NCBI GenBank assembly: GCA_022385805.1
Contig: MU277791.1
Location: 20,807 to 49,338, forward strand
DNA: 28,532 bases
From: Pilatotrama ljubarskyi
Taxonomy: Eukaryota; Basidiomycota; Agaricomycetes; Polyporales; Polyporaceae
Direction of reading: 5' to 3'
Shown here: in pieces, positions 3,354 to 28,480 of the stretch
How the letters are laid out: each line of letters begins with the position of its first letter
Position numbering within the stretch: position 1 is the stretch's first letter
Position numbers and translations under genes: made by a program
The notes under the pieces: generated by a model
The model's input: the letters and a program-made list of their open reading frames with translations, nothing else
Told to the model about the DNA's origin: nothing
Databases searched by the model: none

Positions 3354-4205
3354 AAGAGGGGTCTGCGTGCAGTGTTGGCGGTGTGTTTCATGATTCGCGC
3401 GGCAGGCTGACTCTTACACGCAGTTTGCAGGAGAGAAGCTCGAGAGAGCGGAAAGCGATGTCGTCTGGAGGTTCTCTGAACCGACTTGCGTCGTTGCCCG
3501 GCATGAGAGGTAAGCGATACGCGTCCTCGGCTGCAGGTCGAAGACTGAAGGTGCCCTCCCGAAGATCAACTCTTCCCACCACTCTCTCCCCCGGGGTCTG
3601 CTGCGCCCTTACTGCCATCCGCGGCTCCTCAAGCAGTACCTCGCGCGAGGAGTGCTAGGTGGCACACGCACCCGGTTACCGCTCCCAGCGACGACGTCTC
3701 GGAGCACTCCACCGGCGACTACAAAATGCAGACTGAGTTGTATTGTGGCATAGCCGACCCTTCCCTCAAGTGTCCACGCACCGCCGTTCCCTTGCAGCAA
3801 TGCGAGTCGTGCCACACCGCCGGAGCCGGGGACCACCATCTCGTATCCGGCGCCGACCTCAAAGCTTTGATAGGCCTCGCTCTGGATCCTCCCCCGCGAA
3901 AATCTAAGCGTGGCCAGGGTGACCGCGCGAGGAGGCATGAGCTCCTGATGCGCTTTGGGTCTCAACTCTTCGGTCCTGGTGCCATCCCTGGACTCGGCGA
4001 TGCTCCGTCGCCCAAGCGGCATTCAAAGCGCAGCCGCCTGAAAGGCTTCAGGTACCTGGTGCGTCGCGACTACGCCGTCTGTCCCCAAGGCGTCGTCGTC
4101 GATAAATGTCACTGCGGGGATTTGGATCAAGAGTCATTGACTTTGCAGCCCGCTGGGATGAGTGACTACGATCATCGTGACGGAGACGAGTGGTGCGACG
4201 CGTGA
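3354..4205 (+). pseudogene. M1: 5'-truncated copy of the tandem membrane-protein family, cut by the LINE
   Basis: Only the end of exon 2 and exons 3-4 remain here. The last codons of exon 2 (to 3380, reading LRAVLA) match the family's IRVKLA/IRAAIA end. Intron 2 is 3381-3430. Exon 3 is 3431-3509 and begins ERSSRERK, like the other copies. Intron 3 is 3510-3564, and exon 4 is 3565-4205. Exon 4 encodes the conserved C-terminal region HHLVSGADLKALIGLAL, the basic helix RRHELLMRFGSQLFG, a second basic helix KRSRLKGFRYLVRR, and the acidic end DGDEWCDA. In frame upstream of the LRAVLA block is LINE sequence with a stop, so exon 1 and most of exon 2 are displaced to the far side of the LINE or lost. 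Splice sites are inferred from paralogue phase. Confidence 0.75.
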
Positions 4206-4680
4206 AGATATAGCAATATGTTCTTCGCAGAAATTGCAACAATATCGGTTACGCTCTCACGCTCCCCTATTCTCTATTTTTTAATGGCTGAAACGCTGCT
4301 GCCGAAGCGAACGTCAGCTCGTATTCATTGCTTAGAATGCCCACTTACTTATCCCCTATGCTCTTCTCGTTTACAGTGAGGACATTGCTGCGTACTACCC
4401 TTGCTTCCCTTGTATCATACATCATAGGCTCGAGCACTTGCTGCCGCGCGTCGCGTGTATAGTAGTACGGACATGTACAGTATATCACCTACGGTACTGT
4501 CAAGGGCAAACTTGAAGCGAAGTGCACCACGTCCTGCAATGACCCATTTGTTCGCAGTGCACGACAAATATACTGCTTTCCAAGAAGGAGGCGAGGTCCA
4601 TCTGCCGCCTCACCGAAAAATAGTGCGCACAGAGCATACAAGTATTATCAAACCAATGTCATTTGGGTATGAGCATCCGT
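4206..4680. other. Spacer between M1 and the M2 promoter, no gene seen
   Basis: This stretch is AT-richer than the surrounding genes and has only short, unconserved open frames. At the equivalent place in the other units a minus-strand kinase begins about 60-80 bp left of the promoter motif. I searched for its diagnostic start and for the LRPRYSP block and found neither. The kinase of unit 2 therefore appears to be deleted, with the breakpoint just left of 4681. Confidence 0.6.
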
Positions 4681-4710
4681 CAACGTGGGAATACGTGGTT
4701 TCCGGAATAG
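4681..4710. promoter_or_regulatory. Conserved double-ACGTG promoter motif, unit 2 (kinase lost)
   Basis: The sequence starts CAACGTGGGAATACGTGG and continues TTTCCGG. It matches the motif found at 17754, 21963 and 26837, each time in the K/M intergenic region. Here it stands about 320 bp upstream of the M2 start, with no kinase on its left. Its survival without the kinase suggests it serves M, or both genes. ACGTG is the core of bZIP/bHLH-type sites, but no specific factor can be named. Confidence 0.6.
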
Positions 4711-5032: not shown

Positions 5033-5546
5033 ATGTCCGACGAGGGGTACAACCTCTTTGGTGCGATTGCAGGCGGTATCGGCATCGTAACTGTATTCCC
5101 CCTCCTTGCGTGCTGGTTACTGAGCCAACTTCCTACGGCGAAAATGCGCGAGCTCGACCAAATGCTATCGGACACTGAATCACTCCTTGATTCCTCTGTT
5201 CGGGAGGGCCTTCTCCACGGAGGCAATGATTTCCAACCATTCCGCGTCAGATTGTGGGCGTAAGTCATGACCGCGATACTGTACATGCCCCTCAGCCTTC
5301 TCACGCCAGCATAACAGAGTACAGCTCCGCGCCGATGACCTGCGGGGTAAGCTGTACGACGTCAATACGTGGAAAGAAGAATGGGACTCTTGGTGGAAGG
5401 GTTCGTCCGGCGCCATTAGACTCCTCCGAACGGAGCTCAGCAAGCTACGAGTTGCGCTGGTGGTAAGTTTCGATGTGTTCCTCTTTTTCTCGCACTAAAT
5501 CAACTCCGTTTGCAGAGATACAGCTCCATACAACGCCGGCAGCTCT
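5033..5546 (+). pseudogene. M2 5' part: exons 1, 2 and start of exon 3, interrupted by the Plavaka element
   Basis: Exon 1 is 5033-5259, exon 2 is 5318-5462, and exon 3 starts at 5516 and is cut at 5546/5547. The start codon aligns with those of M3, M4 and M5. Exon 1 encodes MSDEGYNLFG followed by a hydrophobic segment (about residues 9-30) and a helix ending VREGLL. Exon 2 encodes a Trp-rich, probably helical region (TWKEEWDSWWKG) ending LRVALV. Exon 3 opens with RYSSIQRRQL. All three visible exons are open and have family-typical lengths (227 and 145 nt for exons 1 and 2). The gene continues at 13620 beyond the transposon. Introns 1 and 2 are 58 and 53 nt. Confidence 0.8.
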
Positions 5547-5560
5547 CATCGGCAAAAGCG
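5547..5560 (+). repeat. Left terminal inverted repeat of the Plavaka element
   Basis: CATCGGCAAAAGCG is the exact reverse complement of 13606-13619. It is followed by subterminal AAGCGCTT copies, including a perfect 12-bp palindrome GCAAGCGCTTGC at 5571-5582 and a further AAGCGCT at 5583-5589. These are candidate transposase-binding sites. Confidence 0.85.
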
Positions 5561-6006
5561 TTGAAAACACGCAAGCGCTTGCAAGCGCTCGTGAGTACTT
5601 ACAAACCCCGGAAGTACTTGCATGTCTAAGACCCATATGCGATGGTTACGGCCCTCCGCACAAGCGCATGCAAATCACTGGGATCACTGCCAAACCCGGC
5701 GCGCAAATATGCACTTTGTGAGTGATTGGGGCCTTTCCACGCCCTCGCAATGCCATACATGCGATCCTGTGGTTACCGAGCCTGCATCACGAATATATTC
5801 GATTGTATAGAGGTTCAGGGCATATTCGTTACCAGACCCGGGAGATCAACGGAAGACCAGTACTAGGATAACAGCGAGCATGATTATTTGAGCGAACACA
5901 GCATACAATACATCGAGCAAGAGATTAGAGCAGGAATTCACGAGGCGAGTGAACAGCGCGAAGGAGCATTCAGCAGGTTACGCTGATAGAATGTCCAAGG
6001 GGCAAC
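5561..6006. other. Left internal end of the transposon, no gene
   Basis: The stretch holds the subterminal AAGCGCTT repeats (5571-5590), two GTACTT copies near 5595-5620, and then AT-richer sequence that probably includes the 3' untranslated region of the DUF6698-like gene ending at 6007. No conserved coding frame was found. Confidence 0.5.
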
Positions 6007-8003
6007 TCAGGCGGCCATCTCCGGCGCGTTGCTGCTGGGCCACACGGAATTGCACTCGGCTTCCAATTGCTGCCTGAATACTTCGAACTGGTTCTCGGCG
6101 TCGCAATCGGCCTGGGGAGAGTCCAGCATAGACTCAATACCGTAGACATGCCTGGGAAGGGGAAGCGCAGTCAGTGGGAGAAATGATGCACATCGGGTAT
6201 AGATGGCTACTTGTTGAAGAGATGCAGGACAGGTTCTGCGAAGTTCTTGAACGCGAAGAGCATGACGATGTTGTCGAAGAACTGTGCGCCGTCGAAGACC
6301 TTGGGATTCTGATGGACCCAGCTGCTTTCTGAGGAGAGAACATGTCGCATCTGTTATCGTTGTTAGCACGGACGCCGACGCTCTTAGGGGACTGCCTACT
6401 AGGCAAGCGACGTAGGCGATGTTCTCGGGAGTGACTTGAGTTATGCCATTCATGCGCGAGATCGAGGCACGTCCTGTACCGCCAACACCTGGTGCTTTCG
6501 TGGACGAGTCGGGGCTGGTCCAGATACAACGATATCCCTAATGAACAGCGTGAGTATTTGTCTCAGATGACCGCGAGGATACTCACACCGATAAGGGGGG
6601 CGCCCTCGAACAGCCCGTCGCGGAAGTATTTCGGGTCCTCCCGTACGGGCTTGGAGTTGTCGTAGAGGAAGTTTGCGAAACCGGCATGATTCATGTTGAT
6701 GTCCCCAGCGTGTATACCCTCAAGAAACCTGTAAATGAGATGTGATACGTTAGCATTAGCCTGAGCGACGTAGCAAAACAACTTTTACTTGTCCGGATCG
6801 CTGTCGAAGTCGTTAACCGCTGACCTCCATGTCAAGAGACGTGCCGACCAGGTACTGTTCCAGCCCCAGTTCGCTCGGTTCATGTCGAACTTACCCTCCG
6901 CAGTCAGAGGACTGTACGTGCGAGTTTCGCCGTCATTGTCGGGATCTTGGATCTTGACGACCGGGATCCACTTGCTCAGGTGGTCTTTCAGGGTGCAAAT
7001 GTCGGCGGCACGTCCTTGGCGTGCATGATGGTCGATCTATATGCCCGGACATGTGATGAGCACGGTCCTCCGCGGGCAGAAGGGACTCACGAAGTTGCTA
7101 AACAACCCTAGAGCGCACTGGTCCTCTTCGAGGAGCGGGAGCATGTCCGGTAGGAACGATACTCGCTCCAGAAGCCATTTCCCGAGCTTGACGTACCGCT
7201 CGCGTAAGGGTGCCGGGCTGTACGAAGAGTCGGCAGTCAGTATACACGGCCGGAAGAGGATGCCGTACCACTGGCGCAGGACGGCGCTGCGTTGGAAAGC
7301 CTCTTCTTGGCTAGGGCTTGCGCATATAGTCAGTCCTATAGCGACAGCTTGACTAGTCGCAAGGTATGGGCCATGGAAACGCAACGCCAGACGTGCAATG
7401 TTGTGGAGATGATCCAATTGTGAGCCGGCCGAGCTGGAGCAAGTCAGCATACCTCAAGGGTCACAGTGCGAAGCAACGCACTCAATCTTCCATCGTCCAG
7501 CCTCCTTGGACCTCGCGAGGGCTGATACCAGGGCGTCAAACTTGCCGCGCACTGCGTCGCTAGCGACGCCTGGTACAGGTGCAAGCTGGGGAGGGTCAGC
7601 GCGCATATCCGCCTCCGGGTCGTTCGAGAGTTCCGCAAACTCCTCAGGGGTGAGTTCGAAGTCGTCGTTCGCAAGAGCTGGCGAGCTTCTACCGAGGGTC
7701 CTTCTGTGGGTACCGCTGCGGCTCGAAGACCTTCCGTTGGCAGGCGAGCTGTTGCGGCGGCGCCTTCTGCGGTCATGGCTGCGAGACGGAGAATACGATC
7801 GCCTTCGTGAGCGCCTGTCGTCGCGACCTCGCGGGCTGTCGGACCGGCCCCGTTCATTGCGGCGACGCTGGGAAGGTGCTTCTCCACGCGAGTTCAATTC
7901 GGTAGGTGAGGGGACCCGTCTTCGGAGGCGCATATACTCAGTCTGTTGAATAGTCCAGTAGTGAAAAGACTTACTGAGGACGACGAGAGGTGGACCGCCC
8001 CAT
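6007..8003 (-). CDS. DUF6698-like protein carried by the Plavaka element
   Basis: The model has eight minus-strand exons: 8003-7975, 7919-7482, 7433-7091, 7036-6789, 6728-6587, 6537-6393, 6328-6211 and 6151-6007, giving 535 aa. The start gives MGRSTSRRPQ. A 55-nt intron then joins it in phase to an Arg/Ser-rich tract (about residues 15-75), followed by an acidic segment FELTPEEFAELSNDPEAD and a globular domain. The blocks NHAGFANFLYD, GYRCIWTSP, GRASISRMNGITQVTPENIA and FDGAQFFDNIVMLF match a basidiomycete-restricted family I recognise as DUF6698, function unknown. It is transcribed divergently from the transposase. The RS-rich start may bind RNA or chromatin (inference). The exon 5 donor at 6392 is weak (GTCCCC) and the least certain junction. 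Confidence 0.72.
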
Positions 8004-8318
8004 TTGCGGCTCGTCCTGAAAATCTTGCTGAGGCGAATGCGAGAGATGAGGGGAGGAGAGAATGGGCATATTCGACTGCACGCCGTGCTTTTTGAGGAGG
8101 ACGAGTGGGGCGGCACAGAAGCCAGCGCGGAGTTGGAAGATCTGCCTACCGGTTTTGGTGCGAGAGCTGCCATTCTGGGCGAACGCGACGCGTACACGTA
8201 CATCACGTGCTCGCGTGGACTTCGTCGTTTTCGCATCCTGACGTTCCTCTGGCTCTTACCCTCTATTCAGGCCATGCGGCCGGTCTATGTCCTCGCCCTT
8301 GCATGCTTTCTCTTCTAC
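8004..8318. promoter_or_regulatory. Bidirectional promoter between the two transposon genes
   Basis: These 315 bp separate the start of the DUF6698-like gene (8003, minus) from the transposase ATG at 8319 (plus). Open frames crossing it in both directions lack the family N-termini and are treated as chance. No TATA box is obvious. Confidence 0.45.
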
Positions 8319-11300
8319 ATGTCTCAGCTCTGCATAGGATGTGGCAAGAATTGGACCAGGATCAACCGTCATCAGGAAACCTGCAGGCCGTATCTCGCCC
8401 TCACCGGACCCAATGGCCTCAAAAAACGGGCAGCAGACGCACAGGAGGCCATCGAGGAGGAAGAACGTCGGCGGGAGGAGAAACGACGGGCGGAGGCTGC
8501 GCGGTTGAGGGAGCTCACCGAGGAAAGGGCAAGAGAAGAGGTGCGCTAACACTTGTGTTATGCGCAGAGGACGCGCCTTAGCTGATACTTCATGCGCAGG
8601 CTCTCAGAGAAGCTGCACGTCCTGTGGACATCCCGGTGCTCAGTCGTGCTGGGCGGCGGCGACGCGCACCGGCGTGGATTCGTGCGCAGGACATGGTGCC
8701 GACTTCCCTTGCAGGACTCCCAGAACATATCCCACGTCCTCAAACCCCGGCAGTACAACGCCCGCCTCCTCCAACGGTAGAAGACGCCCCAGATCTTGAG
8801 GAAGAGCTCAGAGATTCTACTCCTAGCGTCGATATCTCCCCCATCGAAAGCAAGCCCAATGCATTCGGTGTTTTCCGCCGCTACACGCAGATGCCCCAGC
8901 ACGACCCCGAGGAAGGCTTGAATATCGAGGCATTCAACGACATTCGTCCGCAGGACCACGAACCACGCGGTCATGAGCGAAGGGACCCTCTCAGACCCTT
9001 CGGCCTGACAGCAGCATCCTCCCTGTCCGACTACTTCGCACCGTTCATCAACGCATCCGTGTTCCGCCTCATGCGATGGTTCTACTCCGGCTCAGTCACA
9101 AAGTCGGCGGCCGAGCTTGACCGCCTTGTCACCGACGTCATCCTCGCAGAGGATTTTAATCCTCAGGACCTCCGGGGGTTCAGCGCCGCGCAAGAGCTCA
9201 AGCGGATGGACGAATGCACAGATGGATCAGAGGCTTTCCCGGCGACAGACGGCTGGAAGCGGGGCACTGTTGAGATACCGCTCCCTAAGGCGAAAGTGCA
9301 GCATGACTCGGAAGCCTCGGCCCCAACGCTCAAGGTTGACAACGTCTATTACCGGCCTTTTCTCGCCTCGATCAAAGCGGCTTACCAGGATCTGGTCGCG
9401 GGGCAATATCATTTCGTGCCATTCAAGCTCTTCTTCCGCGGTCAGCATCCCCCATCCCCCATCCATTTGAGAATAGTTCGCTGATTTTATCAACAGCGCC
9501 GCAATCCACACCTGCGCCAAGCACGGGCACCGCTCACGGGACACCCCCTCCGCCAGTGGAGCGCTTGTATTTGGAGGCGTACAACTCGGACGCGCTGATC
9601 AAGCTCAACGACGAAATACAGGAGAAAGCAAGAAACGATCGTGAGTCCAGAGATGACCCGGAAATGGAATATGCCGTCGCTCCAATCGCCCTCTACTCCG
9701 ATTCCACACATCTCACAAACTTCGGGGTCGCCTCGCTGTGGCCTGTCTACTACTGGATCGCTAGCCTCTCGAAGTACATCCGCGTGATGCCTACATCCTT
9801 CGCAGCCCATCACTTGGCATACATCCCCTCAGTAAGCCAGCAGTCCTATACACACTTGTGATTCACTCACGCGACAGTTACCTGCAGCTTCCGGACATCA
9901 TCCAGCAAGCCTACGAGCAGCAATACGGTTGCCCTCCAACTGCAGCAATCCTTCGCTTCTGCAAGAAGGAGCTCATCCAGCAGATCTGGCTCCTTCTTCT
10001 GGACGACGATTTCGTGACCGCTTATGTGCATGGCTTTGTCGTCGAGTGCGGAGACGGCATCAAGTGTCGACTCTTCCCTCGCATACTGACTTACTCCGCA
10101 GATTATCCTGAGAAGTAAGTGGATCGGTCAGACGATGTCATCAGCAGGCATGTCTCACGGTGATTCTCTAGGTGTCTCATCGCATGCATCAAGTTCCTCG
10201 GCCACTGTCCATGCCCGGACTGCCTCGTACAAAAATCCCAGATACACCTCATGGGGACCAAGAACGATATGGCTTTGCGGCACAGTAAGATACGCGAGGA
10301 CACCCCCTGGCTACGCGCAATGCTGTCACGTGTGCGAGGATGGATTTTCGGCCGGGGCTATGCACCTGAGGGCAAACACATTGAAGGAGTCCTCGGGGCC
10401 ACATCGACTTCCCCAAACCAGGTACGTCCCTTGACGAGCTGTTCCCTCTCATGTTTTGCCCCTAAAACATCCTTGTGGAGATTGTTAAGCCAATCTATGC
10501 ATCCTTCTTACATATTCCACAGCTATGTGAAGTCTAACTCGACTACTATCGCCTCATATTGACCCCAAGTTGATGCATTCTGGACAAGCCATTTCATGCT
10601 ATTGGCATCAATAGTTTCTTTCAGGAAGGCTCTGATTTAATTACAGAGTTTATACTATACATGTGCAAGGTGCTCCATGCTGCAATATGCAACGAAAGGC
10701 CGCTAGGTAGCAGCAGACCTGGCAGGTTGGACAAGTCTGAGGGGTCTGACTGAGAAAAGGTCAGACATGCCAGACACTCAGAGATTTGCGAAAGTACTGA
10801 TGCCTGAGGGCAAACACATTGAAGGAGTCCTCGGGGCCACATCGACTTCCCCAAACCAGGTACGTCCCTTGACGAGCTGTTCCCTCTGCTTCGTTGTGTC
10901 TTACCTGGCGCACGAATCATAGAGCGCGTTCTCACGGCGCCTCGGCCAGTTTGGCTTCGACATATATCGCACCCTCGTGCCGGACTTGATGCACGAGTTC
11001 GAGCTCGGAGTATGGAAGTCGACCGTCACACATCTCATACGGATACTCACGTCCATCGGCGCCTCCGCAGTCAATGAGCTGAATTCCAGGTACGACAGCT
11101 TCGCTTTTAGATGGTGTTAACACTCCTACAAGCTTACTTTCCGGCAGATTTGTGGAGGTTCCCACATTCGGGCGGGACACAATCCGACGCTTCAGTACAA
11201 ACATCGCTGGTCTGAAGAAAATGGCGGCGCGCGACTTCGAAGACATGATACAGGTACGTCATCCTGGTGTCGCACCGACCGTATGGCATTAACGTTCAAC

Positions 11301-13328
11301 ATAGTGCGCGATACCAGTATTCGAGGGGCTACTCCCCGCCGCCCATGACCGCATTGTGCGCCGGATGCTATTCAGGCTTGCTACCTGGCACGCCCTCGCA
11401 AAGCTCCGCCTCCATTCTGACACCACTCTCACACACCTCGAGAACATCACACGCGCGCTCGGCCAAGCGATGCGTGCATTCAAGTCGAAGGTATGCCCCG
11501 AATACGATACCCGAGAGCTAGACAAAGAGGTCGCTGCGCGGACTCGAAGACGTCTCAAGAAAAGAAAGGACACCAAGAACAACGCCAGTACTTCTCTACC
11601 CCAGCACACCGAGAGCGAGAACCACGATGGCGAGCGCGTTCAGAAGGAATTTAACCTGAATACGTACAAATTCCATCGGCTCGGCGATTATCCTTCCTCG
11701 ATTCGGCAGACAGGTACAATTGAAGGGACCTCGACGCAAACGGTGAGCATCTGGCCGAGGCTATTACAATGCGCTACACCTCGTCCATCAACACTGATCT
11801 CTTCACAGGGAGAGCTCGAACATCGGCGGTGCAAGCAGTTCTACGTGCGAACAAACAAGAACGCGACATTTGTATCCCAGATCGCGAAGCATCAACGCCG
11901 CGAGCGATTTGTCAATGATATACACCAGCGCATGCCCGGAGCGAAGGAGCCCGCCCGCAAGCACTCAGCAAGACGACTGTTCACGAGGAGCACGGTTGGG
12001 CCACTCCAGCTTGGGCCCGACGACTTCGAGCCTCTCGGTCCCACGTCCCCGCGCGACCACCACAGGATCTCAGATGACCAGCGCCACCACGTCGACATCA
12101 TGGGGTTTGTTCTGGAGAACAAGGACGATCCCGCTGTCGATGTGAGGCTACTATATCCTGTGCTGTGTAACTGCTCCGTCATTGACTGTGGTTTACAGGA
12201 CTTCGCTCGGAAACTCCGATGTCACGTAGTCGAGCGACTGCACGGGTTGAGCGATCCATCGCCTTCGCAAGCCGACACTCCGCACTACGTACCCTCCAAT
12301 CAAGACCTCGCGGCGCTGCGTATACGGCACAATCGCATGTACATTCACAAGCGCATGCTCGTCAACTACACCTCCTACGACATGCGCCGGCAGCAGGATT
12401 CAATCAACCCGAGCTCGCACAACGACGTCATGCTCCTCGCACCTGCAGGCAGCTCACATCCTCATCTGTACGCTCGAGTGCTCGGCATCTTCCACGTCAA
12501 TGCGTACCTCGCAGGCCAAGGCAACGAAGAGCCCACCCTTCTACATATTCTGTGGGTGCGCTGGTTCAATATCGACGAAACTGCGCCGTGGGGATTGGAC
12601 GCATGCGCGCTCCCCCGACTCGAATTCGCGCCGCTCGACGACGACCCATTCGGCTTCATCTCACCGGACCAGGTCCTTCGCTCTATCCATCTCATCCCCG
12701 CCTTCGCCCACGGCCGTTCGGACGTCGCGCTACCTGGGTACAGCCTTGCGCGCTCAGATAACGAAGAGGATGAGGACTGGAACTTCTACTATGTGGGGAT
12801 GTAAGTGCCCGGATGCCTCTGGTGCAGTCTGATGGTGCTCATGCTATGGTTATATCAAGCTTTTCGGACCGTGATATCTTCATGCGCTTCCTCGGCGGCG
12901 GTATTGGTCATCAACAGATATATTCCAGCGTATCCATGGCACATCAAAGCACCCAGGACTATGGAGAGGAGGATTTCGAAAGCAGTACACTCGCATCAGC
13001 GGCTCGCGAAGAAGATCTCAATGAGGACATGGGGTACCATGAGCCGGATGGTCCCGCAGGAATGGACTTGAGCTCAGATGACGAAGGCGCTGATGTGGTC
13101 GAACAGGAAGCAGAGGACGAAGCGGTCGACTTCGGCTATACACCATCCGATTCCGACTCGAGCTCCGACTCTGGGTCTGAGAAGGCCGGCGGCGAGGACG
13201 AACCAGCTGGTCGGCCGACATTAAGCATTGTGATACCGCCGAGACGCGGCACGGCGCGGCCTATCGAGGACCTTAGAGGCGAAGGAGACGACATGGAAGA
13301 TCTGTATTACGGGTTTGCTGCACCGTGA
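8319..13328 (+). CDS. Plavaka-type transposase, 11 exons, intact frame
   Basis: Exons are 8319-8540, 8600-9440, 9497-9831, 9888-10114, 10172-10421, 10923-11089, 11148-11253, 11305-11742, 11809-12141, 12199-12800 and 12860-13328. The lengths sum to 1,330 codons in one frame (1,329 aa). The N-terminus has a zinc finger, CIGCGKNWTRINRHQETC, then a charged helix. The catalytic core shows family blocks YSDSTHLTNFG, GHCPCPDC, LVPDLMHEFELGVWK, FVEVPTFGRDTIRRFS, AARDFEDMIQCAIPVFEGLLP and NYTSYDMRRQQDS. D423, D646 and E723 are likely RNase H-fold catalytic residues (inference). The C-terminus has DRDIFMRFLGGGIGHQ and an acidic Ser/Asp tail. Intron 5 (10422-10922) is swollen to 501 nt by an insertion. 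If that intron is still removed, the protein is complete. Confidence 0.88.
10365..10449 (+). repeat. 85-bp direct repeat, copy 1 (transposase exon 5 end and splice donor)
   Basis: The copy runs from CCTGAGGGCAAACAC to CTGTTCCCTCT and is identical to 10803-10887. It covers the last 57 nt of exon 5 and the first 28 nt of intron 5, including the GTACGT donor at 10422. The two copies flank 353 bp of unrelated, AT-richer DNA. Confidence 0.95.
10450..10802. mobile_element. 353-bp AT-rich insertion inside transposase intron 5
   Basis: The stretch is clearly AT-richer than the surrounding element and has no recognisable coding frame. It contains a small inverted repeat (GTCTGAC 10744-10750, GTCAGAC 10760-10766). 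It is bracketed by the 85-bp exact direct repeats, far too long for a normal target-site duplication. It may be a small non-autonomous element plus a local duplication, or filler DNA from a break-repair event. Which of these it is cannot be told from sequence alone. Confidence 0.5.
10803..10887 (+). repeat. 85-bp direct repeat, copy 2
   Basis: It is identical to 10365-10449. This copy leads straight into the rest of what looks like the original 63-nt intron (10860-10922, GTACGT to ATCATAG), so the original junction is the copy 2 side. The duplicated 57 nt of exon sequence now lies inside the enlarged intron. Confidence 0.95.
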
Positions 13329-13605
13329 CGTTGTACTAGAGTAGTATTGTTGTCTACTGTACTAGGTGCCAATGGGTTTCAGCTCGCACTGTGTTGTGTG
13401 GTAGACCATCGAACCGCGTAGTTGCCCCGCTACAACCATCATGCATTGTATATGCCCTCAAGCACTTGTAAAGTACATGTGGACATCGGTGCTTTGCAGC
13501 TGCGCGCAAGCAATTCTGCGCTCCCGCCCGACTTTGCAAGAGCTTGGTAGCGCTTCCAAATCAGGACCAGATTTGGAAGCGCTGAAAACCCTTGGGCGCC
13601 ATAAG
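13329..13605. other. Right internal end of the transposon with subterminal palindromes
   Basis: This is the transposase 3' flank. The main structure is a perfect inverted repeat: AGCGCTTCCAAATC (13549-13562) and its complement (13570-13583) around a 7-nt loop. It shares the AGCGCTT core with the left end. No gene is seen. Confidence 0.65.
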
Positions 13606-13619
13606 CGCTTTTGCCGATG
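13606..13619 (-). repeat. Right terminal inverted repeat of the Plavaka element
   Basis: CGCTTTTGCCGATG is the exact complement of 5547-5560. It is immediately followed by CTC (13620-13622), matching CTC at 5545-5547. This gives a 2-bp (CT) or 3-bp (CTC) target duplication, depending on whether C5547 belongs to the repeat or to the host. Confidence 0.85.
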
Positions 13620-14390
13620 CTCTTCTGCTGGGCACTTGAACAACGTCACACATTTTGCTGGTATTCGAGGTCTGTATCCATCTACATCATGTTAGCACTA
13701 TTCACTGAAGCGCTTCAAGGATGGATATTTGGACCATTCTTGAGCTCTGATCAGCCAAGTGCGCCATCTCGTTGGCAGCATCCGACTCCTCAACCGATGG
13801 CGACCGATTGTGACATACACGCCCGCTCCGAATCGCAGGATTACTTCCCGATGCCCGCTTCTGCCAGCATATATGGTACAGCACATCCCGGACATACCTC
13901 GAGATGTGGCCTGCATTGCCGTCCTAGTGCCATGTCCCCTTCGCCGCTCGCCACTCCTTCCTGCGCGACTCCGGACGGATCCACCATGTGTGGCTCTTGC
14001 ATGGGCGGGAGCGATTCAGGTGCAGAGCATCACATCGTCTCTGCAAAGGACCTGCAAGAAGTTCTGTTGCTTGTCATAACGCATCAAGTCCGACGACGGG
14101 GGAGTGTAAGCAAGCGTCAACGTGCTGTACGGCAGGCGCTCCTTCTCCGCTTTGGCCGGCGGCTGTTTGGTTCCGGCGCCGCCAACGGGTGCCCGGAGGG
14201 CCTGTCGCAGATGGGGCACACCCAAAACAATCGCATCAAAGCCATCCGACGATTCATACAACGCACGACCGAGGTGCACGCACATGGTTTCGCGGCCTCC
14301 AGCAATGAAGATGGTCGCCGATGGGAGCCCCTGACCACTGAGCTTGTCTCCGACGATGAATGCGACGGCGAAGAGTGGCACGACGTCTGA
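13620..14390 (+). pseudogene. M2 3' part: rest of exon 3 and exon 4, beyond the transposon
   Basis: Exon 3 resumes at 13620/13621 and ends at 13669, reading SSAGHLNNVTHFAGIRG, which aligns residue for residue with M1 (SSGGSLNRLASLPGMRG). A 50-nt intron (13670-13719) leads to exon 4 (13720-14390). Exon 4 carries the family C-terminus: HHIVSAKDLQEVLLLV, a basic block KRQRAVRQALLLRFGRRLFG, a second basic helix NRIKAIRRFIQR, and the acidic end CDGEEWHDV. The ATG at 13611 that opens a longer frame lies inside the transposon end and is not a real start. Without the insertion the gene would encode about 373 aa. As it stands it is split by 8.07 kb. Confidence 0.8.
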
Positions 14391-15151: not shown

Positions 15152-15347
15152 GCTACACTCACCAGAAGGGATTGCATACCAGTCGTTACATGGTCATACA
15201 CGAAGAACGTACCGCCGGGTATCCTGTGAGACGAAGTTGGTTCTCGTTCAGTCTAGGCCACTATACGTCGTTTGGCGCACTACAGGGCTGCATAGTAGGG
15301 AGTATGCTCACCGATTTCAGAGATCGCACGGCGAGAATAGGCTGCAG

Positions 15348-16358: not shown

Positions 16359-17677
16359 TCACCTCACGAACTTCTTCAGGTGGTATATGCCTTCCCATGC
16401 GACGGCGACGGTATTGTTGAACATCCGTTCAATGGCGGGTTCGGTCTTCGGGCCTAAGCGCCAGCGGTAGAGCGACTCGTTTAGGTCCGCGCGGATATGC
16501 TCCCACTTCTGCAGAAGCTGAGATGCCGTCGGACGAAGTTCTGGACGCTGTTGTAGCATCGGTTCGATCAGGGGAAGCAGGAACTGCGTGCTGTTGTATT
16601 TCTGTTGACGCGTCAGCTATGTGTGGTTCGGGGGGAGGACGAGGCTCACCTGCTCGAACTCCTTGAAGTATAGGTTACCCAGGGCGTAGATGTCGACCTT
16701 GAACGCATCGTAGGGGACGGTTTTCGACAACTCCGGTACTTCCTTGTCTCGTCCAACACGGCCCACAACATATGGCGGGGCGCCCGGTGGGAACCAGGAC
16801 GACAGTCCGAAGTCAACATAGTAGTACTTGATCGACCGACCAGCTCGAGGTAATGGCTTGATCTCGTACAGGGCATCGGACGTATACTCGCGCCGAACCG
16901 GATGATGACCGCCAGGATATAGTGGTGTGCCATCCATCATGATGTTCTCGATGGCAACGTCGCTGCTTGAACGTCAGTGCGGCGTAGGCAAAAGCTCTCA
17001 CGTCCGTACCGATGAGCTATGTTGTGTCTGTGAAGGAAGACGAGACCCTGGTGCGCGTCAGACGAGAACAAGTCGTATGCAGGCTTTGTGTTACCTCGAG
17101 GGTCTGATTCACAAACTCGACCAGATCACCGACCGTAGAGAACTGTGGGTCGTTGCATGGCCTCAGGTAGGGCATGACCATCAGGGATAGCCCGGGGTCG
17201 AACGGATCGCGCAATATCTGGTAGACGGGAACACAGCGGTTCTGAGGATCCTCCAAGGATGAGAGATACTGAGCGATGCGCGACTCTTGGGTATCATTCC
17301 TAAACTTCTTGATTGCTACGAGCCTATTGTCCTTCCGCCGCCTTGCGTCGATCACCTGGAAGTTCTACGTACGGATCCTGAGTGAGCGACTTCTCTCAAA
17401 AGCTCAGATTCGACCAACCCACAATCAACATAATCGAGTCTTCGCAGAATGTAGGCTCTAGGTTCGTTTCTTTCCACGAGGGCTTCCATTTTGGTGAGTA
17501 GCGCGGTCTCAGCAGGTAGCCTTGCTCATGGAGGTACGGTTGACGGTCTTGCCAAAAACGCTCGGAGGGGAGAAGATCATAGACGCCCTGATCCGTGAGG
17601 CGCGCAGCTCGCTTCACGCCATCTTCATCCAGGACGGCATGACTTGGCAAACGCTTCTGGTTCTCCAGCGTAGACAT
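16359..17677 (-). CDS. K3: kinase-like protein of tandem unit 3
   Basis: The exons are 17677-17423, 17364-17095, 17047-17010, 16962-16650 and 16601-16359 (255/270/38/313/243 nt; 372 aa). The first ~85 residues hold the family signature GYLLRPRYSPKWKPSW. The kinase core follows: VAIKK with Lys104, a hinge at VMPYLRPC, HRD at 187-189 split across the exon 3/4 junction, DVAIEN with Asn194, DFG at 238-240, and KVDIYALG for subdomain IX. The C-terminal ~60 residues end in WEGIYHLKKFVR. A glycine-rich loop is not evident, and the usual catalytic-loop lysine is Ala. Asp189, Asn194, DFG and Lys104 are all kept, so activity is plausible. It is divergent from M3 across 488 bp. This family is expanded in basidiomycetes; its substrates are not known to me. 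Confidence 0.92.
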
Positions 17678-18165
17678 AGACCGACAGCAAATGTGGAAGG
17701 AGGCACGGGAAACAGCGCATCATGCCTGCGGCTCAAGCTGGAGAATGCCTGTCCAACGTGGAGGCAACGTGGTTCCCGTAAGCGGCAACTACGTTCAGAG
17801 CGCTCGGAACGCACAGCGCCCATATATTCTAAGTACCAAGTTCCTTCACCAGCACAGCTCAGCTGGAATCCACCCGCCAGGTTCATGCGGTACAGATTCC
17901 GTGCGCATGCTTGATGGCCATGCACGGGACTATCATCATCGATGCATGCACCATACACGTTCCTAGGATCCCATGGAAGTCCGCTCTGCCAGTGGCAATC
18001 CGGTGCCGTCTCATATAACTACCAGATACCCCGTCTCGTCCGGCCGCTCATATTCTCACCCTCAGAATCCCGCATACCTCGCTCGAGCGACCGCACCACA
18101 CCCGGGTCTCCCAACCGTCTTTTGAGCACTATAACCATTTGCCTACTAGTCCCCGGGTTCCGGCG
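17678..18165. promoter_or_regulatory. Bidirectional K3/M3 promoter region
   Basis: The 488 bp between the two start codons contain the conserved double-ACGTG motif (17754-17796), two short CATATA-like runs (near 17820 and 18013), and pyrimidine-rich sequence before M3. A shared regulatory region is inferred from the fixed geometry in three units. Confidence 0.6.
17754..17796. promoter_or_regulatory. Conserved double-ACGTG promoter motif, unit 3
   Basis: CAACGTGG, then a second ACGTGG eleven bases later, then TTCCCGTAAGCGG and TACGTTC. The order and spacing match units 2, 4 and 5. It lies 77 bp from the K3 start. The GTAAG near its end is also found in units 4 and 5 and could be a splice donor in a plus-strand 5' untranslated exon. 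Confidence 0.65.
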
Positions 18166-20570: not shown

Positions 20571-21904
20571 TCATCCAACGAGCTTCTTCAAGCGGTATAC
20601 GCCCTCCCAAGCAACTGCAACCGTGTCGTTCATCACCCTTTCGAATGCAGGCTCGGACTTGGGCCCAAGGCGCCAGCGATAGAGTGTCTCGCTGAGCTTA
20701 GCTCGGGTCTTCACCCACTCCTGTAGGGCTTGCTCCGCGGTGGGCCGTGCCTCGGGCTGCCGTGCCGTCATTGGTTCGATCAACGAGAGCAGGAAGTCCA
20801 TACTGTTGTATCTCTGCGCGAATGTCAGTGAAAATCAGGCGCCCCGGGTGGACGTCGGCGCTCACCTGCTCGAACTCTTTCGAGTACAGGTTTCCTAGTG
20901 CGAAGATGTCGACCTTGAAGGCGTCGTATGGGACGTCATCGGATAGCTCTGGGACATCCGCGTCTCTCCCTACGTCTCCGACGACATATGGTGAAGTTCC
21001 CGGCGGAAAGTGCGATGCAAGCCCGAAGTCGATGTAGAAGTAGCGCACTTTACGACCGGCGCGGGGTAGGGCCGATACGGGGTATAGGCCTTCTTCGCTA
21101 TAATCTAAGCGTATGGGATGGTGTCCGTTTGGGTAGAGCGCTTTGGCATCCATCATGATGTTCTCCACCGCTACGTCGCTAAGATGATCATTCTTCTGCT
21201 GGCTGTCCGATGTACTCAAGAGAAGGCTTACCGATGAGCTACGTGGTGCTTGTGCATGAAGGCAAGACCCTGTGGATCTCTTGAGGCAGATGCGGATTGG
21301 CGGAAGCTCGTAGACTAACCTCGAGCGTTTGATCAACAAAGTCAACGATGTCTCCTATCGTAGAGAACTCTGGATTGTTGCAGGGCCGCAGGTAGGGCAT
21401 GACCATCAATGCGAATGACGGGTCGTGCGGGTCGGCGAGAATCTGGTGAACGGGGACGCAATGGTTTCGTGGGTCCTCGATGGAAGCAAAGAACTGTGCA
21501 ATCTGTAGCTCATGTCCCTCCTTGAGGAACGACTTGATAGCGACCCGCTCTTGGTTCGAGAGTCGGGTCGCGTCCATAACCTGGTAATCCTAAGGCCGGC
21601 TTTAGCGACTTCCATACCCATCTACCGAGGCTGCTGTGAACGGACGCACAACCAGCAAGATCGAGTCCTCACAAAAGTTTGGATCAAGGTCTGTGCCCGA
21701 CCATGACGGCTTCCAGTCTGGCGAATATCTCGGTCTCAAGAGGTAGCCATGGTCGCGCAGGTAGCGGTATCGGGCTCGCCAAAATCGTTCTTTCGGGACA
21801 AGATCATAGAAACCCTCAAGCGTGAGCTGGTTATGGCGTGCCACGGAGTTCTTGTCTAGAAAGGCATGGTTCGGCAACCGCTTCCGCTTGACCTGTGCAG
21901 ACAT
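20571..21904 (-). CDS. K4: kinase-like protein of tandem unit 4
   Basis: The exons are 21904-21650, 21589-21320, 21269-21232, 21178-20866 and 20813-20571, with lengths identical to K3 and K5 (372 aa). The signature GYLLRPRYSPDWKPSW is followed by VAIKS (Lys104), a conserved Glu in HELQIAQFF that may act as the helix-C glutamate, MVMPYLRPC, HRD at 187-189 with DVAVEN (Asn194), IDFGLASHFPPG, and KVDIFALG. The C-terminus is WEGVYRLKKLVG. It is closest to K5 by eye. It is divergent from M4 across 499 bp. No stop, frameshift or missing catalytic residue was found beyond the family-wide lack of a clear glycine loop and of the HRDxK lysine. Confidence 0.92.
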
Positions 21905-22403
21905 AGAGCGAGTACAAAGGGAGGCAAACGCATTGGGTGAGTGCTTCGCTCCCTGTAGAGCCCAACGTGGGGAAAACGTGGTGCCCAGAATGGTAAGTTA
22001 ACTAACTAAGTATGTTCGAGCCATTCGCTCATCTGCAGACTAGCGCCCAGGATCTAAGATGCGACTTGAACAGGCCGTGGTCGGACACACGCCAGTACGG
22101 CCTTGCAGCACCAAAAATCCCCGTCGTCGTTCTCGGCCTCTCTAGATGCGTTTCGCAGGAATATTCTGCTGGCGATGATATTGATGCACGCTGTTCCCCA
22201 CGTTCCACCCGTGCTAGCAGCACTCCGGTCCTGCCTCACCAGGGTCGGCAGACCGTCGCATTCATCTATCATAAAGTGCGGGCTACTCAGTTTGCTCCGG
22301 TCAGGACCCTCCCCCACAGTTGCTCCTCTCCCGGTGGCCTCGTCACCGTTACTGTCTCCAACCACTCAATACCACTCATCTCTGCTCAGCTGCCCCTCCA
22401 GCA
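21905..22403. promoter_or_regulatory. Bidirectional K4/M4 promoter region
   Basis: The 499 bp hold the conserved motif (21963-22000) and a CT-rich run before the M4 start. The GGTAAGTTAAC just after the motif is a good splice-donor sequence on the plus strand, so M4 may have a 5' untranslated exon. Confidence 0.6.
21963..22000. promoter_or_regulatory. Conserved double-ACGTG promoter motif, unit 4
   Basis: CAACGTGGGGAAAACGTGG is followed by TGCCC and GGTAAGTTA. It lies 59 bp upstream of the K4 start on the opposite strand. It has the same order of elements as in units 2, 3 and 5. Confidence 0.65.
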
Positions 22404-23674
22404 ATGTCTGACCTAGGCTGGAATGTCTGGGGCGCCGTCGCAAGCGTACTCGGCACGCTCGCACTCCTTCCCCTTCTGGCTACCTGGTTTCTCTCCCGCT
22501 TACCATCAGCGAAGTTACCTGCTCTACTGCGCCTCCTGAGGGAAACGCAGGACTTGTTCTCAGCCGCTCTTCGTGAAGGCCTCATCACGGATGAGAGCGA
22601 GTTGCACCAATTCAACGTCAACCTCTGGGCGTAAGTGTCTTACAGTGCTTTCAAGCGTGTGGCGCCAGCTTAGCGACCATGATTGTTGTCGCCCTTCCTC
22701 ATCAGCGCGACTATCCGTGTCGACGAAGTTCGTGAGCTGGTTTACGCCACTAACTCGTGGCAGGGAGACGTGGTTCACTGGTGGCGCGGCTGGTCTGGGA
22801 AAATGGCGCTCATCACCAGCAATCTCAATGCCATCAGAGTGAAACTGGCTGTGAGTACAATGTGAATGTCTGCCATGCTCGTCGTACTCACGCACGCTCA
22901 TTTGTGTAGAAGAGGCACTCGAAGGAACGGAAGAGACTGGCTGCGGAATGCTCCCCGTCCGACCTGCCATTGCTAGCGAACGGAAAATCCGGTCAGCTTC
23001 ATTCCGTTTTGTTTCGCTCGCCATTGTGTAACCGTAACCATGCAGAGACATCACCTTCCCTCAAGCCTACGTCACATGGCCCGAGTCCTTGTCTTGTACT
23101 CCCTCGCGAGGAGCTATTCCTAGGCGGCTCCGGTCAAGCACACGATTTCTCGCGAGCTTCTCATCCGGCGATACGGGACGTCGTGAACAATCTAGGCTCT
23201 GGGCGGCCTCGTGTCTATGAGCCCGCCACCGTCGACCATGGCGACACTCGCGATCCCCGAGCCATTCCCCCTCGCTACGCCACTCATACACCCACCACCG
23301 AGGTTGCATCACACTATCTGGTCTCGGACGCGGATTTGAAGAGTCTCCTGGGTCTCGCCTTGGCGCACCCCGTCACGCAGATGGAGAGAGGCAAACGAAA
23401 GAAGAGAGCGATGCGACAAGACTTGCTCCTGCGCTTCGGCAGGCAGCTCTATGGTGGACACGTTCCGGCTTGGTCAGGCACTGGTGCGATGCATCCGAAG
23501 CCGGCTCATCCGCAGAGCAGCCGTCTCAAGTCGCTCTCGTGCCTCTTGCGGCGTACCTGGGGTGGCTATCCAGGAGATGGGATGCGGTGGAATGCTCGTA
23601 CTGTTCTCGAAGGATCAGTGCTCCCCGTCGCTCCTGAGGGAGGTGGCGATAGCGACGAGTGGGTCGATGTGTGA
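22404..23674 (+). CDS. M4: membrane-anchored helical protein, best-preserved copy
   Basis: The exons are 22404-22630, 22706-22850, 22910-22991 and 23046-23674, giving 360 aa. MSDLGWNVWG leads into a ~20-residue hydrophobic segment (about 11-30, AVASVLGTLALLPLLATWFL), then SRLPSAKLPALLRLLRETQD and LREGLI. Exon 2 encodes a Trp-rich helix (VVHWWRGWSGK) ending IRVKLA. Exon 3 starts KRHSKERKRL. Exon 4 has a Ser/Pro/His-rich, probably disordered linker, then HYLVSDADLKSLLGLALAHP, a basic helix KRKKRAMRQDLLLRFGRQLYGG, SSRLKSLSCLLRR and the acidic end GGGDSDEWVDV. Intron 3 is 54 nt without an in-frame stop, so its retention would add 18 residues. The likely topology is N-terminal anchoring with a cytosolic helical bundle (inference). 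No family is recognised. Confidence 0.78.
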
Positions 23675-25433: not shown

Positions 25434-26764
25434 TCACTTTACAAACTTCTTCAAGCGGTATACGCCCTCCCAAGCGACTGCGACAGTGTCGTTGACAACT
25501 CGATCGAAGGCTGGTTCCGCTTTTGGCGCTAGTCGCCAGCGGAAGAGGGACTCCTTGATCGTCGCCCGTGTCTTCTCCCATTCTCGGAGGACTTCTTGCG
25601 CAGTTGGTCGTAATTCCGGCCGTCGCTGTGTCATAGGTTCGATTATGGAAGGCAGGAAATCCATGTTGTTATACTTCTACGCTTAGAGTCAGGCACGGAC
25701 TCTACATCTCTCGGTGCCAGAGACTTACCTTTTCGAACTCCTTGGAGTATAGATTTCCAAGAGCGAAGACGTCGACCTTGAAGGCATCGTATGGGACGTC
25801 GTCGGATAGCTCCGGAACATCTGAGTTCCTGCCGAAATCCCCGACCACGTATGAAGAGGATGTCTCAGCGAAGTGGGAGGAAAGCCCAAAGTCGATGTAG
25901 AAGTAGCGAACACCTCGACCAGCTCGGGGTAATGCCGTAACCGGATACAGCGCGTCTGGAGTGTAGCCCATACGTATTGGATGGTGTCCCGACGGATAGA
26001 GCGGCTTAGCGTCCATCATGATGTTTGCGAATGCTATATCGCTATATTGATCATTGTCCAGGTGACTGTACGATCGCTAGTGTGAGCCTTACCGATGAGC
26101 TACACGATGTTTGTGCATGAAGACGAGACCCTGCAGCAGAGTTATCCATAATATTCTGTTAAACCACACATTTCGACTGACCTCGATTGTCTGGTCAACG
26201 AACTCGATGATGTCGCCTATGGTAGCGAAGTCCGGATTGTTGCAGGGTCTGAGGTAGGGCATGACCATCAATGCTAGTTGTGAATCGTGCGGATCAGGGA
26301 GGATTTCGTGTATTGGAACGCAGTGATTTTGAGGGTCGCGAATGGAGGAGAAGAATTGGGCAATGTGCAGCTCCTCTCCTTCCTTCAGGAAGGCTTTGAT
26401 AGCCACTAGTTCGCGATTCGAGATCCTGGTCGCATCTATGACTTGATAATTCTATATGGTGTGCGCGGCGTCAGCGAACGAGTGCCGAGCACGGTGAGGT
26501 ACGACTCACGATCAGCATAATGGAATCTTCGCAAAACGTAGGATCAAGGTTCGTGCCTATCCAGGAAGGCTTCCAGCCAGGTGTATACCTCGGCCTCAGC
26601 TGGTAGCCGTGGTCCTTCAGGTAATTGTAACGCGCTTCCCAGAACAGCTCTTTCGGCATGAGATTGAAGAGGCCCTCGCACGTGAGCTTCGCGTAGCGTT
26701 CCACAGACTCGTCATCCAGAACAGCATGGTTAGGGAGCCGCTTCTGCCTGACTGGCACGGACAT
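25434..26764 (-). CDS. K5: kinase-like protein of tandem unit 5
   Basis: The exons are 26764-26510, 26451-26182, 26130-26093, 26041-25729 and 25676-25434 (372 aa, same lengths as K3 and K4). It shows GYQLRPRYTPGWKPSW, VAIKA with Lys104, MVMPYLRPC, HRD at 187-189 followed by IAFAN (Asn194), IDFGLSSHF, KVDVFALG and the end WEGVYRLKKFVK. It differs from K3/K4 in the catalytic loop, where the Glu before Asn194 is Ala, and it lacks the PPG after the DFG loop (HFAETSSSY instead of HFPPGTSPY). All core catalytic residues remain. Its partner M5 carries stop codons, so this kinase persists beside a broken M gene. Confidence 0.92.
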
Positions 26765-27186
26765 AGACCTCGGGCGAGTGGTGGAAAGCGCATCACTACA
26801 AGCGCGTGTGGCAGTCCTTGTTGCCGCCCAGAAACCTGCGTGGGCAAAACGTGTTGCCGTATGCGGTAAGTACGTTCATATCGCCCGGGTCCGCCGCGAC
26901 TCGCACTCCCTACGTTGTTCCACGCACGATCGCTACAAAAGAGATCTCAGGCGGGGGCGACTTCGCCACTACTGCATCTCAGATTCTACAACACGCTAAA
27001 CCTGTGTTGTCAGTGTTCTCTCCGACAGACGAATGCACGCGTCAGGCACGTTCACCCCCCGTGCCGGGGGGACTCAAATATGGGAGAGCTATGCTTGCCA
27101 CCCTCTCTCGCTCTTCACGTGCACACTGCTCCTCGTCCATCCTCCTCACTCGCCTATAACCCTTCGACTCTAATCTCAGATCCAGG
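26765..27186. promoter_or_regulatory. Bidirectional K5/M5 promoter region
   Basis: This is 422 bp, the shortest of the three complete intergenic regions. It contains the conserved motif at 26837-26876 and a GGTAAGTACG donor-like string. Confidence 0.55.
26837..26876. promoter_or_regulatory. Conserved double-ACGTG promoter motif, unit 5
   Basis: TGCGTGGGCAAAACGTGTTG is followed by CCGTATGCGG and TAAGTACGTTC. It is 73 bp from the K5 start. The first core is slightly degraded (TGCGTGG for AACGTGG), while the downstream GCGG/TACGTTC part agrees best with unit 3. Confidence 0.6.
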
Positions 27187-28480
27187 ATGTCTAATTTGGC
27201 TTGGAACGTCTGGGGTGCCGTCGCGGGTGTCATCGGGATCCTCATGGTGTTCCCGGTCCTCTTCACTTGGTTCCTTTCCCGGACGCCGTCTGCAAAGCTA
27301 CCCCCTCTGCTCGATCTGATGAAAGAGACGCAAGATCTCCTTGACGTTGCCCTCTGATAAGGCTATATCACTGACGGGGACGAATGCTACCAATACAACC
27401 TCAACATCTACTCGTGAGTGTCTCCCTCAACTGCCTCCGTCGTGTGGCGTCAAACGTCTCATACCGTGTATGCCTCTGCTATCCTTTCTCGATGCACCAA
27501 AGAGCAACCATACAAGTTGACGAGGTGCGCATGAAGGTGTACGCCGCGAAGACGCTGCTAGAAAACATCGCAAATTGGTGGCATGGGCTATCCGGCAGGA
27601 TCAATGCCCTTCAGGAGGAGCTGAGCGGCATCAGGGTGAAGCTCATCGTGAGTCGCTTACGAACGTAGACTCGACTGTGTAGAATTTCACGCCACCTCGC
27701 ATTCGCATAGGAAAAGCACTCCAGGGAACGGAAGAAGCGAGCGTCTCAAGCCAACTTCTCATCCTTCTCGTCGGACAGCAAAGGTCTGTTCTCCTGTATA
27801 TGTCTCCGTGACCCGTAACTCATAGGCGATATACAGGACTGGGGCAAACTATCCTTGCTCGCACCGGCCTGGGGCCGAGCGCCCAATATTCATTGCACCT
27901 CGACCATTATGCACCCGTCACCCACTTAAAGCAGGACGTACCTCAACCCGATTCAAACCCTCCTGCAGAGCCCGCCACAATGCAAAGGATGTCTGTGTGC
28001 ACAGTAAGCAGCCTCGGTGGGCCACTCGTGCCCGTAGAAGATCTTGCCGGCCGGCCGGCGTGTCCCCTGGGCGTGAATCCTGCGGCAACCACTCGTCCCA
28101 CCCATCACCTCATCGCCGACCCCGACCTGCAAGGCCTACTTTCCCTCGCGTTGGCTCATCCTATCCTTCCGACCGGTGGCGGCAAACGTCAGCGAGCCGC
28201 CAGGCACGACCTCCTCCTGCGGTTTGGGAGGCAACTGTGGGGAGGCGACCATCTTTCTGTTGCAGGACACGACGCGCCGACGTACCACAAACGGCATCCA
28301 AAACGCGCCCGCATCAAGGCTTTCTCGCGTCTCATGCGGGGTGCGTATGCCTCCAGCAAGGACTCTCCATTTGGCACGCCTTCTGAGATCGCTTGCCGTC
28401 ACTGCCCTGATGGAGACTCGCGGATGGACTCGCGCTGCTCGCACACAGACTGCGATGGTGACGGGTGGGAGGACGTCTGA
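27187..28480 (+). pseudogene. M5: membrane-protein copy with two adjacent stop codons in exon 1
   Basis: The exons by paralogy are 27187-27413, 27503-27647, 27711-27783 and 27837-28480. Exon 1 begins MSNLAWNVWG with a hydrophobic segment and continues to ETQDLLDVAL. The next two codons are TGA TAA (27355-27360), where M4 has Arg-Glu. Translation would stop after 56 residues, leaving just the anchor and first helix. The remainder of exon 1 (GYITDGDE) and exons 2-4 stay open: exon 2 ends IRVKLI, exon 3 begins EKHSRERKKR, and exon 4 ends HHLIADPDLQGLLSLALAHP, RAARHDLLLRFGRQLWGG and DCDGDGWEDV. The decay is therefore recent, or the short anchor peptide is still made. Exon 1 (227 nt) and exon 2 (145 nt) lengths match M2 and M4. 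Confidence 0.82.

What the first reader, a model, noticed from the sequence alone, without database searches (positions are those of the whole stretch)
3354..28480. Tandem array of a divergent kinase / membrane-helical-protein gene pair: candidate undescribed two-gene system
Seen: five copies of the four-exon M gene and three 372-aa kinases, always K (minus) then M (plus), heads facing across 422-499 bp. Known: kinases with the LRPRYSPxWKPSW signature are expanded in basidiomycetes, and clustered, fast-evolving kinase/effector pairs occur in fungal self-recognition and cell-death loci. Inference: M has an N-terminal hydrophobic helix followed by helices, an architecture reminiscent of membrane-targeting HeLo-like or MLKL-like effectors. 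A paired kinase could control it, for example by phosphorylating the basic C-terminal domain. No sequence homology to HeLo domains is claimed.
Basis: partly seen in the sequence, partly recalled or inferred. Interest (0 to 1): 0.88.

Follow-up and report, generated by a model that had tools for sequence, protein, structure and literature searches.

The report
Paired kinase and membrane-protein gene array
A wood-decay fungus carries a fast-changing array of back-to-back gene pairs, each joining a protein kinase to an unnamed protein with a predicted membrane anchor; the pairing is real, but what it does (perhaps telling self from non-self) is untested.

Summary
The window is from a Pilatotrama ljubarskyi assembly (Polyporales). 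Three intact 372-aa kinases (K) face three four-exon genes (M) head to head across 488, 499 and 422 bp. The "five M copies" are two intact M genes, one with two stops in exon 1, one split by an 8-kb DNA transposon, and one 5'-truncated remnant. The pair itself is well supported: 17 of 18 array kinases in the genome (one degenerate) have an M head to head; K and M distances correlate (Mantel r 0.71, 14 pairs); a double-ACGTG element sits in all three window promoters. All 6 M proteins found in four other species lie on contigs that, by length, also carry K. M has an N-terminal hydrophobic helix, a predicted three-helix coiled coil and a disordered tail, and no credible known relative. K and the M N-domain show purifying selection; the M tail looks relaxed. 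Two versions of the array (contigs C77, C122) differ in pairs and transposons. Best reading: a co-regulated kinase/membrane-partner module diversifying by birth and death, perhaps for recognition. HeLo/MLKL kinship is not supported by sequence and undecided by fold. No functional data exist here.

The parts
16359..17677 (-). K1, protein kinase, 5 exons, 372 aa, intact
   Evidence: splice model; equals deposited P0042
18166..19370 (+). M3, helical protein with hydrophobic N-terminal helix, 4 exons, 338 aa, intact
   Evidence: start 488 bp from K1 start
20571..21904 (-). K2, protein kinase, 5 exons, 372 aa, intact
   Evidence: Pfam PF00069 E 1.1e-12
22404..23674 (+). M4, 4 exons, 360 aa, intact; identical to deposited BV20DRAFT_1126194
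25434..26764 (-). K3, protein kinase, 5 exons, 372 aa, intact
27187..28480 (+). M5, 4 exons, two adjacent stop codons (27355-27360) in exon 1: probable pseudogene or shortened gene
   Evidence: deposited model P0008 begins after exon 1
17757..17771 (+). promoter element CGTGGN4AACGTG between K1 and M3
   Evidence: 3 matches in window, 0.03 expected
21966..21980 (+). promoter element CGTGGN4AACGTG between K2 and M4
26839..26853 (+). promoter element CGTGGN4AACGTG between K3 and M5
5033..5546 (+). M1, N-terminal part of an M gene interrupted by a transposon; no kinase remnant found beside it
5547..13619 (.). 8073-bp DNA-transposon insertion with 14-bp terminal inverted repeats, inside the M1 gene
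   Evidence: ends compared with the PlavakaB description in PMC12730594 (passage)
13620..14390 (+). C-terminal part of the interrupted M1 gene
3413..4205 (+). M0, 5'-truncated M copy (exons 3-4 only)

Best explanation
K and M form one two-gene module. SHOWN from sequence: the two genes lie head to head across 0.4-0.9 kb, are inherited together and multiply as a unit in an array that gains, loses and breaks pairs; part of the pairs share a promoter element. K keeps the residues of an active protein kinase and shows no second Pfam domain. M has one hydrophobic N-terminal helix, a predicted three-helix coiled coil, a S/T/P-rich low-confidence linker and, in one subgroup, a conserved C-terminal motif. 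INFERRED: the helix anchors M in a membrane with its bulk in the cytosol. The pair is co-expressed. K docks on or phosphorylates its own M (linker or tail), switching M's assembly or activity. Pair-specific divergence keeps neighbouring pairs insulated. The array diversifies because it serves a recognition-type task, such as non-self or parasite sensing.
For: 17 of 18 array kinases (one of the 17 degenerate) have an M head to head at 422-867 bp. With M4 as query, every match at E below 0.05 in the 33-Mb assembly lies on the three array contigs. K and M N-domain distances correlate: r 0.82 over 16 pairs, 0.71 over 14 without near-duplicates, p 5e-5 (permutation floor), and within both subgroups. 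CGTGGN4AACGTG occurs 3 times in the window, all in K-M promoters (0.03 expected); of 16 copies in the assembly, 6 are in K-M promoters. Other species: 6 of 6 M proteins on contigs that by length also bear K; T. cinnabarina scaffold 184993 reads g19 K, g20 M, g21 K, g22 K. Catalytic Lys, HRD, Asn and DFG are all kept in 15 of 16 aligned kinase models. dN/dS: K2 0.13, K3 0.25, M4 N-domain 0.16, linker 0.79, C-domain 0.69.
Against: No expression, phosphorylation or interaction data. The K-M correlation is expected from co-duplication alone and does not show contact. The promoter element is exact in only 6 of 17 pairs and absent from the second subgroup; its other 10 genome copies and the 23 of the reversed control show that single copies arise by chance. 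Kinases of this family occur in many Polyporales (449 hits, 120 listed), while the M searches found M in only four other species (both scored only about 8000 capped candidates). Unpaired members exist: K at C122:6493, M1 in the window, and an M at C77:128612-129049 with its C106 counterpart. Several M and K copies carry stops or frameshifts, so pairs are dispensable. No dN/dS above 1 was seen.
Confidence: 0.42

Rival explanations
1. Ordinary signalling duplicated without a recognition role: M is a membrane scaffold that positions K, and the array is neutral birth and death of a lineage-specific kinase family.
For: Purifying selection on K and on the M N-domain, no dN/dS above 1; broken and unpaired members; old kinase lineages shared across Trametes.
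Against: Different pair content of C77 and C122 in one assembly; M diverges much faster than K. Neither excludes it.
Confidence: 0.3
2. Selfish toxin-antidote or meiotic-drive unit: M harms membranes, K neutralises it, and each pair spreads by killing non-carriers, loosely as the kinase part of Spok confers resistance.
For: Pairs move as units and differ between two versions of the array; in Spok the kinase domain gives resistance (passages of PMC6660238); tight divergent pairs suit antidote linkage (inference).
Against: M genes occur without a kinase (M1; C77:128612) and K without M (C122:6493), although M1 is broken; K is a canonical protein kinase with no nuclease match; kinase lineages are shared by species.
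Confidence: 0.1
3. HeLo/MLKL-like executioner: M is a pore-forming four-helix effector switched on by K.
Confidence: 0.1

Closest known systems
Eukaryotic protein kinases (Pfam PF00069), deposited as 'kinase-like protein' in Trametes and allies
   Same: K matches PF00069 above the curated cut-off (6 of 6 scanned) and has close relatives in many Polyporales.
   Different: Own N-terminal region with the LRPRY..WxPSW signature (113 of 120 relatives fit the pattern used); arrayed and divergently paired with an orphan gene.
HeLo/HELL domains and the MLKL four-helix bundle
   Same: Extreme N-terminal hydrophobic helix followed by helices; a kinase nearby.
   Different: No sequence match; the predicted form is one membrane-span-like helix plus a three-helix coiled coil.
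Spok spore killers of Podospora
   Same: A fungal locus in multiple copies that includes a kinase function.
   Different: Spok is one protein with predicted nuclease and kinase domains (passages of PMC6660238); K and M are two genes and no nuclease model was reported.
Ascomycete heterokaryon-incompatibility (het) loci
   Same: Versions of one locus with divergent gene content; old lineages.
   Different: No HET, NACHT or HeLo model was reported for K or M; no phenotype known.

Membership tests
Eukaryotic protein kinase | PF00069 match plus catalytic Lys, HRD, loop Asn and DFG | tested here: met
   K2 E 1.1e-12; five relatives above cut-off; 15 of 16 aligned models keep every residue, the exception being a model with a frameshift; two of the 18 models (C122:6493 and the degenerate C77:102625) were left out of that alignment
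FunK1 / Pkinase_fungal family (PF17667, number recalled) | match to that Pfam model | tested here: not met
   six K proteins scanned, only PF00069 and PF07714 reported
HeLo/HELL/MLKL four-helix bundle | sequence-profile match | tested here: not met
   15 M members scanned at E up to 0.1: eight unrelated families, each in one member only (best E 0.0065; among them CARD at 0.014), no HeLo-type model; further members
HeLo/HELL/MLKL four-helix bundle | four-helix bundle fold with amphipathic or hydrophobic helix 1 | tested here: inconclusive
HeLo/HELL/MLKL four-helix bundle | membrane targeting and cell death on activation | not testable with these tools
   needs expression experiments
Spok spore killer | nuclease and kinase domains in one protein | tested here: not met
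   K gives kinase matches only
Non-self recognition (het-type) locus | divergent haplotypes in one species | tested here: inconclusive
   C77 and C122 colinear at 91-97% with different pairs between; a single TALE homeobox match leaves alleles versus duplicated segments open
Non-self recognition (het-type) locus | incompatibility phenotype mapping to the locus | not testable with these tools
   needs crosses and pairings

The most novel reading that the evidence does not exclude
The K-M arrays are a basidiomycete self/non-self recognition or innate-immunity system of a new type: each pair is a kinase switch with its own membrane-anchored effector, pair lineages older than the species are shuffled between haplotypes, and the mixture of pairs sets specificity in Trametes-clade fungi.
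Probability: 0.18. Interest if true: 0.92.

Novelty: new variant of a known kind. Interest (0 to 1): 0.6.

Why it matters
M is a protein family that neither Pfam nor the PDB sequences and folds searched here explain, and it is tied by gene order and correlated divergence, and in part by a promoter element, to one kinase family. That makes a concrete, testable two-gene hypothesis in a group where, as the abstract of PMC8229728 says (passages seen), models of somatic incompatibility rest on ascomycete work. If the arrays govern recognition, they would open the molecular basis of individuality in wood-decay mushrooms; if not, they still define a co-inherited kinase-partner candidate with many natural replicates.

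Tried and rejected
Rejected: five intact M copies. Rejected as shown: K1-M3 and the C77 pair K106928-M108765 being simply divergent alleles. They occupy the same interval between 97% and 91% identical flanks, but the kinase tree puts them in two old lineages, and T. versicolor has a member of each (P0068, P0076) on contigs of the same stated length, so differential retention of old paralogues is at least as likely. Undecided: whether C77 versus C122+C106 are haplotypes of a heterozygous isolate or a duplicated segment. Ends tile (C122 ends at C77:119578; C106 reversed matches C77:126647-129394), the C106 flank searched (6.8 kb) is single-copy apart from a 70% paralogue, and another contig pair is identical over 3.5 kb (C95/C160), which speaks for redundancy in the assembly; but only one TALE homeobox match was found, and PF00046 gave ten scattered matches that did not settle it. 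The DNA search with the C77 flank was not scored.

Led nowhere: Rfam on the window (0 matches); Pfam on the three transposon open frames and the first LINE frame; eight-base word counts in promoters, no better than Markov samples (the gapped element was then picked by eye and tested). A small-xxx-small motif in the M helix (21 of 24) is common in shuffles too (59%). The third protein search, with alignment A2, added only P0129 and P0130. K-like loci outside the array: M templates scored 30-48 on three stretches, noise level, but the head side of two of the kinases there was covered by only 0.35 and 0.74 kb, so this check is weak; the genome-wide search is the better one. HET-s and MLKL chains were not among the listed fold rows, which excludes nothing. 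Literature: in searches (6 of 6 listed; 1 of 1; 7 of 7; 15 of 34; 15 of 286; 6 of 6; 12 of 143; 6 of 7) no listed title or abstract start describes this pair; only passages of PMC8229728, PMC12881547, PMC12730594 and PMC6660238 were read; most subscription journals are not held.
Full report
What is there. The window is C122:20807-49338 of a 33.1-Mb, 173-contig unnamed assembly. The M4 and K1 models equal deposited proteins of Pilatotrama ljubarskyi, and contig C106 has the same length (79,320) as the deposited contig of P0129; C122 and C77 are shorter here than the deposited contigs (49,338 and 133,049 against 52,754 and 137,104). Splice models give three 372-aa kinases with identical exon lengths on the minus strand, and three four-exon M genes on the plus strand, 488, 499 and 422 bp apart start to start. 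K2 and K3 are 73% identical, K1 63-64% to both; M proteins are much less alike (M3-M4 40% in the first 130 residues).

What the other M copies are. M5 carries TGA and TAA in exon 1; the deposited model skips that exon. The C77 counterpart has no stop at that place, though my model of it shows one further on, in a part of uncertain splicing. The N-terminal piece at 5033 and the C-terminal piece ending at 14390 flank an insertion of 8,073 bp (5547-13619): contig C77 has the two flanks side by side at 95.2% and 97.3% identity, and carries a frameshift of its own there. The insertion has 14-bp inverted ends beginning CATCGG and a target duplication of 2 to 4 bp, near the PlavakaB description of 5'-CATCA ends and 2-3 bp duplications (passage of PMC12730594). 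Pfam did not confirm a transposase on the open frames tried, so the class is a recalled label. The copy at 3413-4205 keeps exons 3 and 4; beside it lies a LINE-type element whose second frame matches endonuclease models (PF14529 E 4.3e-9).

The array beyond the window. Searching the assembly with K2 and M4 shows clusters on C122, C77 and C106; every M4 match at E below 0.05 lies on these three contigs, whereas K2 also finds more distant kinases elsewhere. I modelled 18 kinase genes in the clusters: 14 without stop or frameshift in my models, three with one such defect, one degenerate. Seventeen of the 18, the degenerate one included, have an M gene head to head at 422-867 bp; K at C122:6493 has none. 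M scores are 141-1870 (the top two are self-alignments), against 27-37 in ten shuffles with one template and 49 at C122:6493. Four of the 17 M models contain a stop or frameshift. M without a kinase also exist: M1 in the window, and an M at C77:128612-129049 with its C106 counterpart.

Pairs evolve as units. Using 16 of the 17 pairs (the pair with the degenerate kinase was dropped; one frameshifted kinase model was kept), K and M N-domain distances correlate with r 0.82; without two near-identical pairs, r 0.71 over 14 pairs, p 5e-5, the floor of 20,000 permutations; within the two subgroups of seven, r 0.77 (p 0.0017) and 0.67 (p 0.00035). Co-duplication alone would produce this, so it shows joint inheritance, not contact.

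Shared control region. CGTGGN4AACGTG occurs three times in the window, once in each K-M promoter 62-80 bp from the K start, with 0.03 expected from shuffles (distances). In the whole assembly there are 16 copies, of which 6 lie in K-M promoters, that is in 6 of 17 pairs; the reversed control pattern has 23. The element was chosen after looking at the promoters, and two of the six carriers are the near-identical K3-M5 promoters of C122 and C77, so the evidence is suggestive of co-regulation, not proof. The second subgroup of pairs has no exact copy.

Selection. Between C122 and C77 counterparts, dN/dS is 0.13 for K2, 0.25 for K3, and for M4 0.16 in the N-domain, 0.79 in the linker and 0.69 in the C-domain; the last two rest on 14 and 6 synonymous changes. 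M4 dS also varies along the gene (0.46 to 0.07), a possible sign of exchange between copies.

Other species. M relatives were found in T. maxima (3), T. cinnabarina, Cubamyces lactineus and T. cingulata. In T. cinnabarina the numbering g19 K, g20 M, g21 K, g22 K shows direct adjacency. The T. cingulata M is 82% identical to an M on C106 in the N-domain, and a T. cingulata kinase is 85% identical to one on C77, which suggests that lineages of both genes are older than the split of these species. Against universality: K relatives in many further species (449 hits, 120 shown) have no M found by these capped searches.

Two versions of the array. C122 and C77 are colinear over the window's right part (19981-28532, 91.0%), but between the 97% and 91% blocks C122 has K1-M3 where C77 has K106928-M108765. 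The kinase tree, built from 16 of my 18 models and 54 of the 120 fetched relatives, places these in separate, supported lineages with Trametes members. Whether C77 and C122+C106 are haplotypes or duplicated segments is open (see Tried and rejected).

Mechanism. Shown: anatomy, pairing, joint inheritance, a promoter element in part of the pairs, kinase residues kept. Inferred: membrane anchoring, co-expression, phosphorylation or docking of M by its own K through the linker or tail, and a recognition role. The last step rests on array turnover and fast M divergence, which neutral birth and death could also produce; hence the moderate confidence. The drive and HeLo readings are kept as rivals at about 0.1 each.

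Verdict. The effector analogy is a lead only. Interest is good because an orphan protein is fixed to one kinase family in a fast-changing array that no paper seen here describes, but no function has been shown.

Noticed in passing
window 5547-13619: An 8073-bp DNA transposon with matching inverted ends inserted in an M gene; by eye it carries a plus-strand multi-exon gene (about 8280-13330) and a minus-strand gene (about 6007-8236) with an SR-rich part.
   Followed up: partly
window 10365-10449 and 10803-10887: An exact 85-bp direct repeat inside the transposon.
   Followed up: no
window 1-3220, minus strand: LINE-type element: a first frame with cysteine motifs like zinc knuckles (by eye; no Pfam match) followed by an endonuclease frame with overlapping stop and start.
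   Followed up: partly
window 15346-15404 and 24288-24346: A 59-bp repeat (92%) downstream of two M genes; the C77/C122 identity block ends at 15343, next to the first copy, so it may mark exchange points.
   Followed up: no
C77:128612-129049 and C106:76216-76625: An M gene with no kinase found in the 3.7 kb upstream on C77, present in both versions of the array.
   Followed up: partly
C95:73000-76500 and C160:5003-8503: Two contigs identical over 3.5 kb in opposite orientation, containing another K-like kinase: redundancy in the assembly.
   Followed up: partly
C106, left part of C122, right end of C77: A second subgroup of pairs with wider promoters (636-867 bp); their M models show no clear copy of the C-terminal motif, and several promoters contain CACGTG by eye.
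   Followed up: partly
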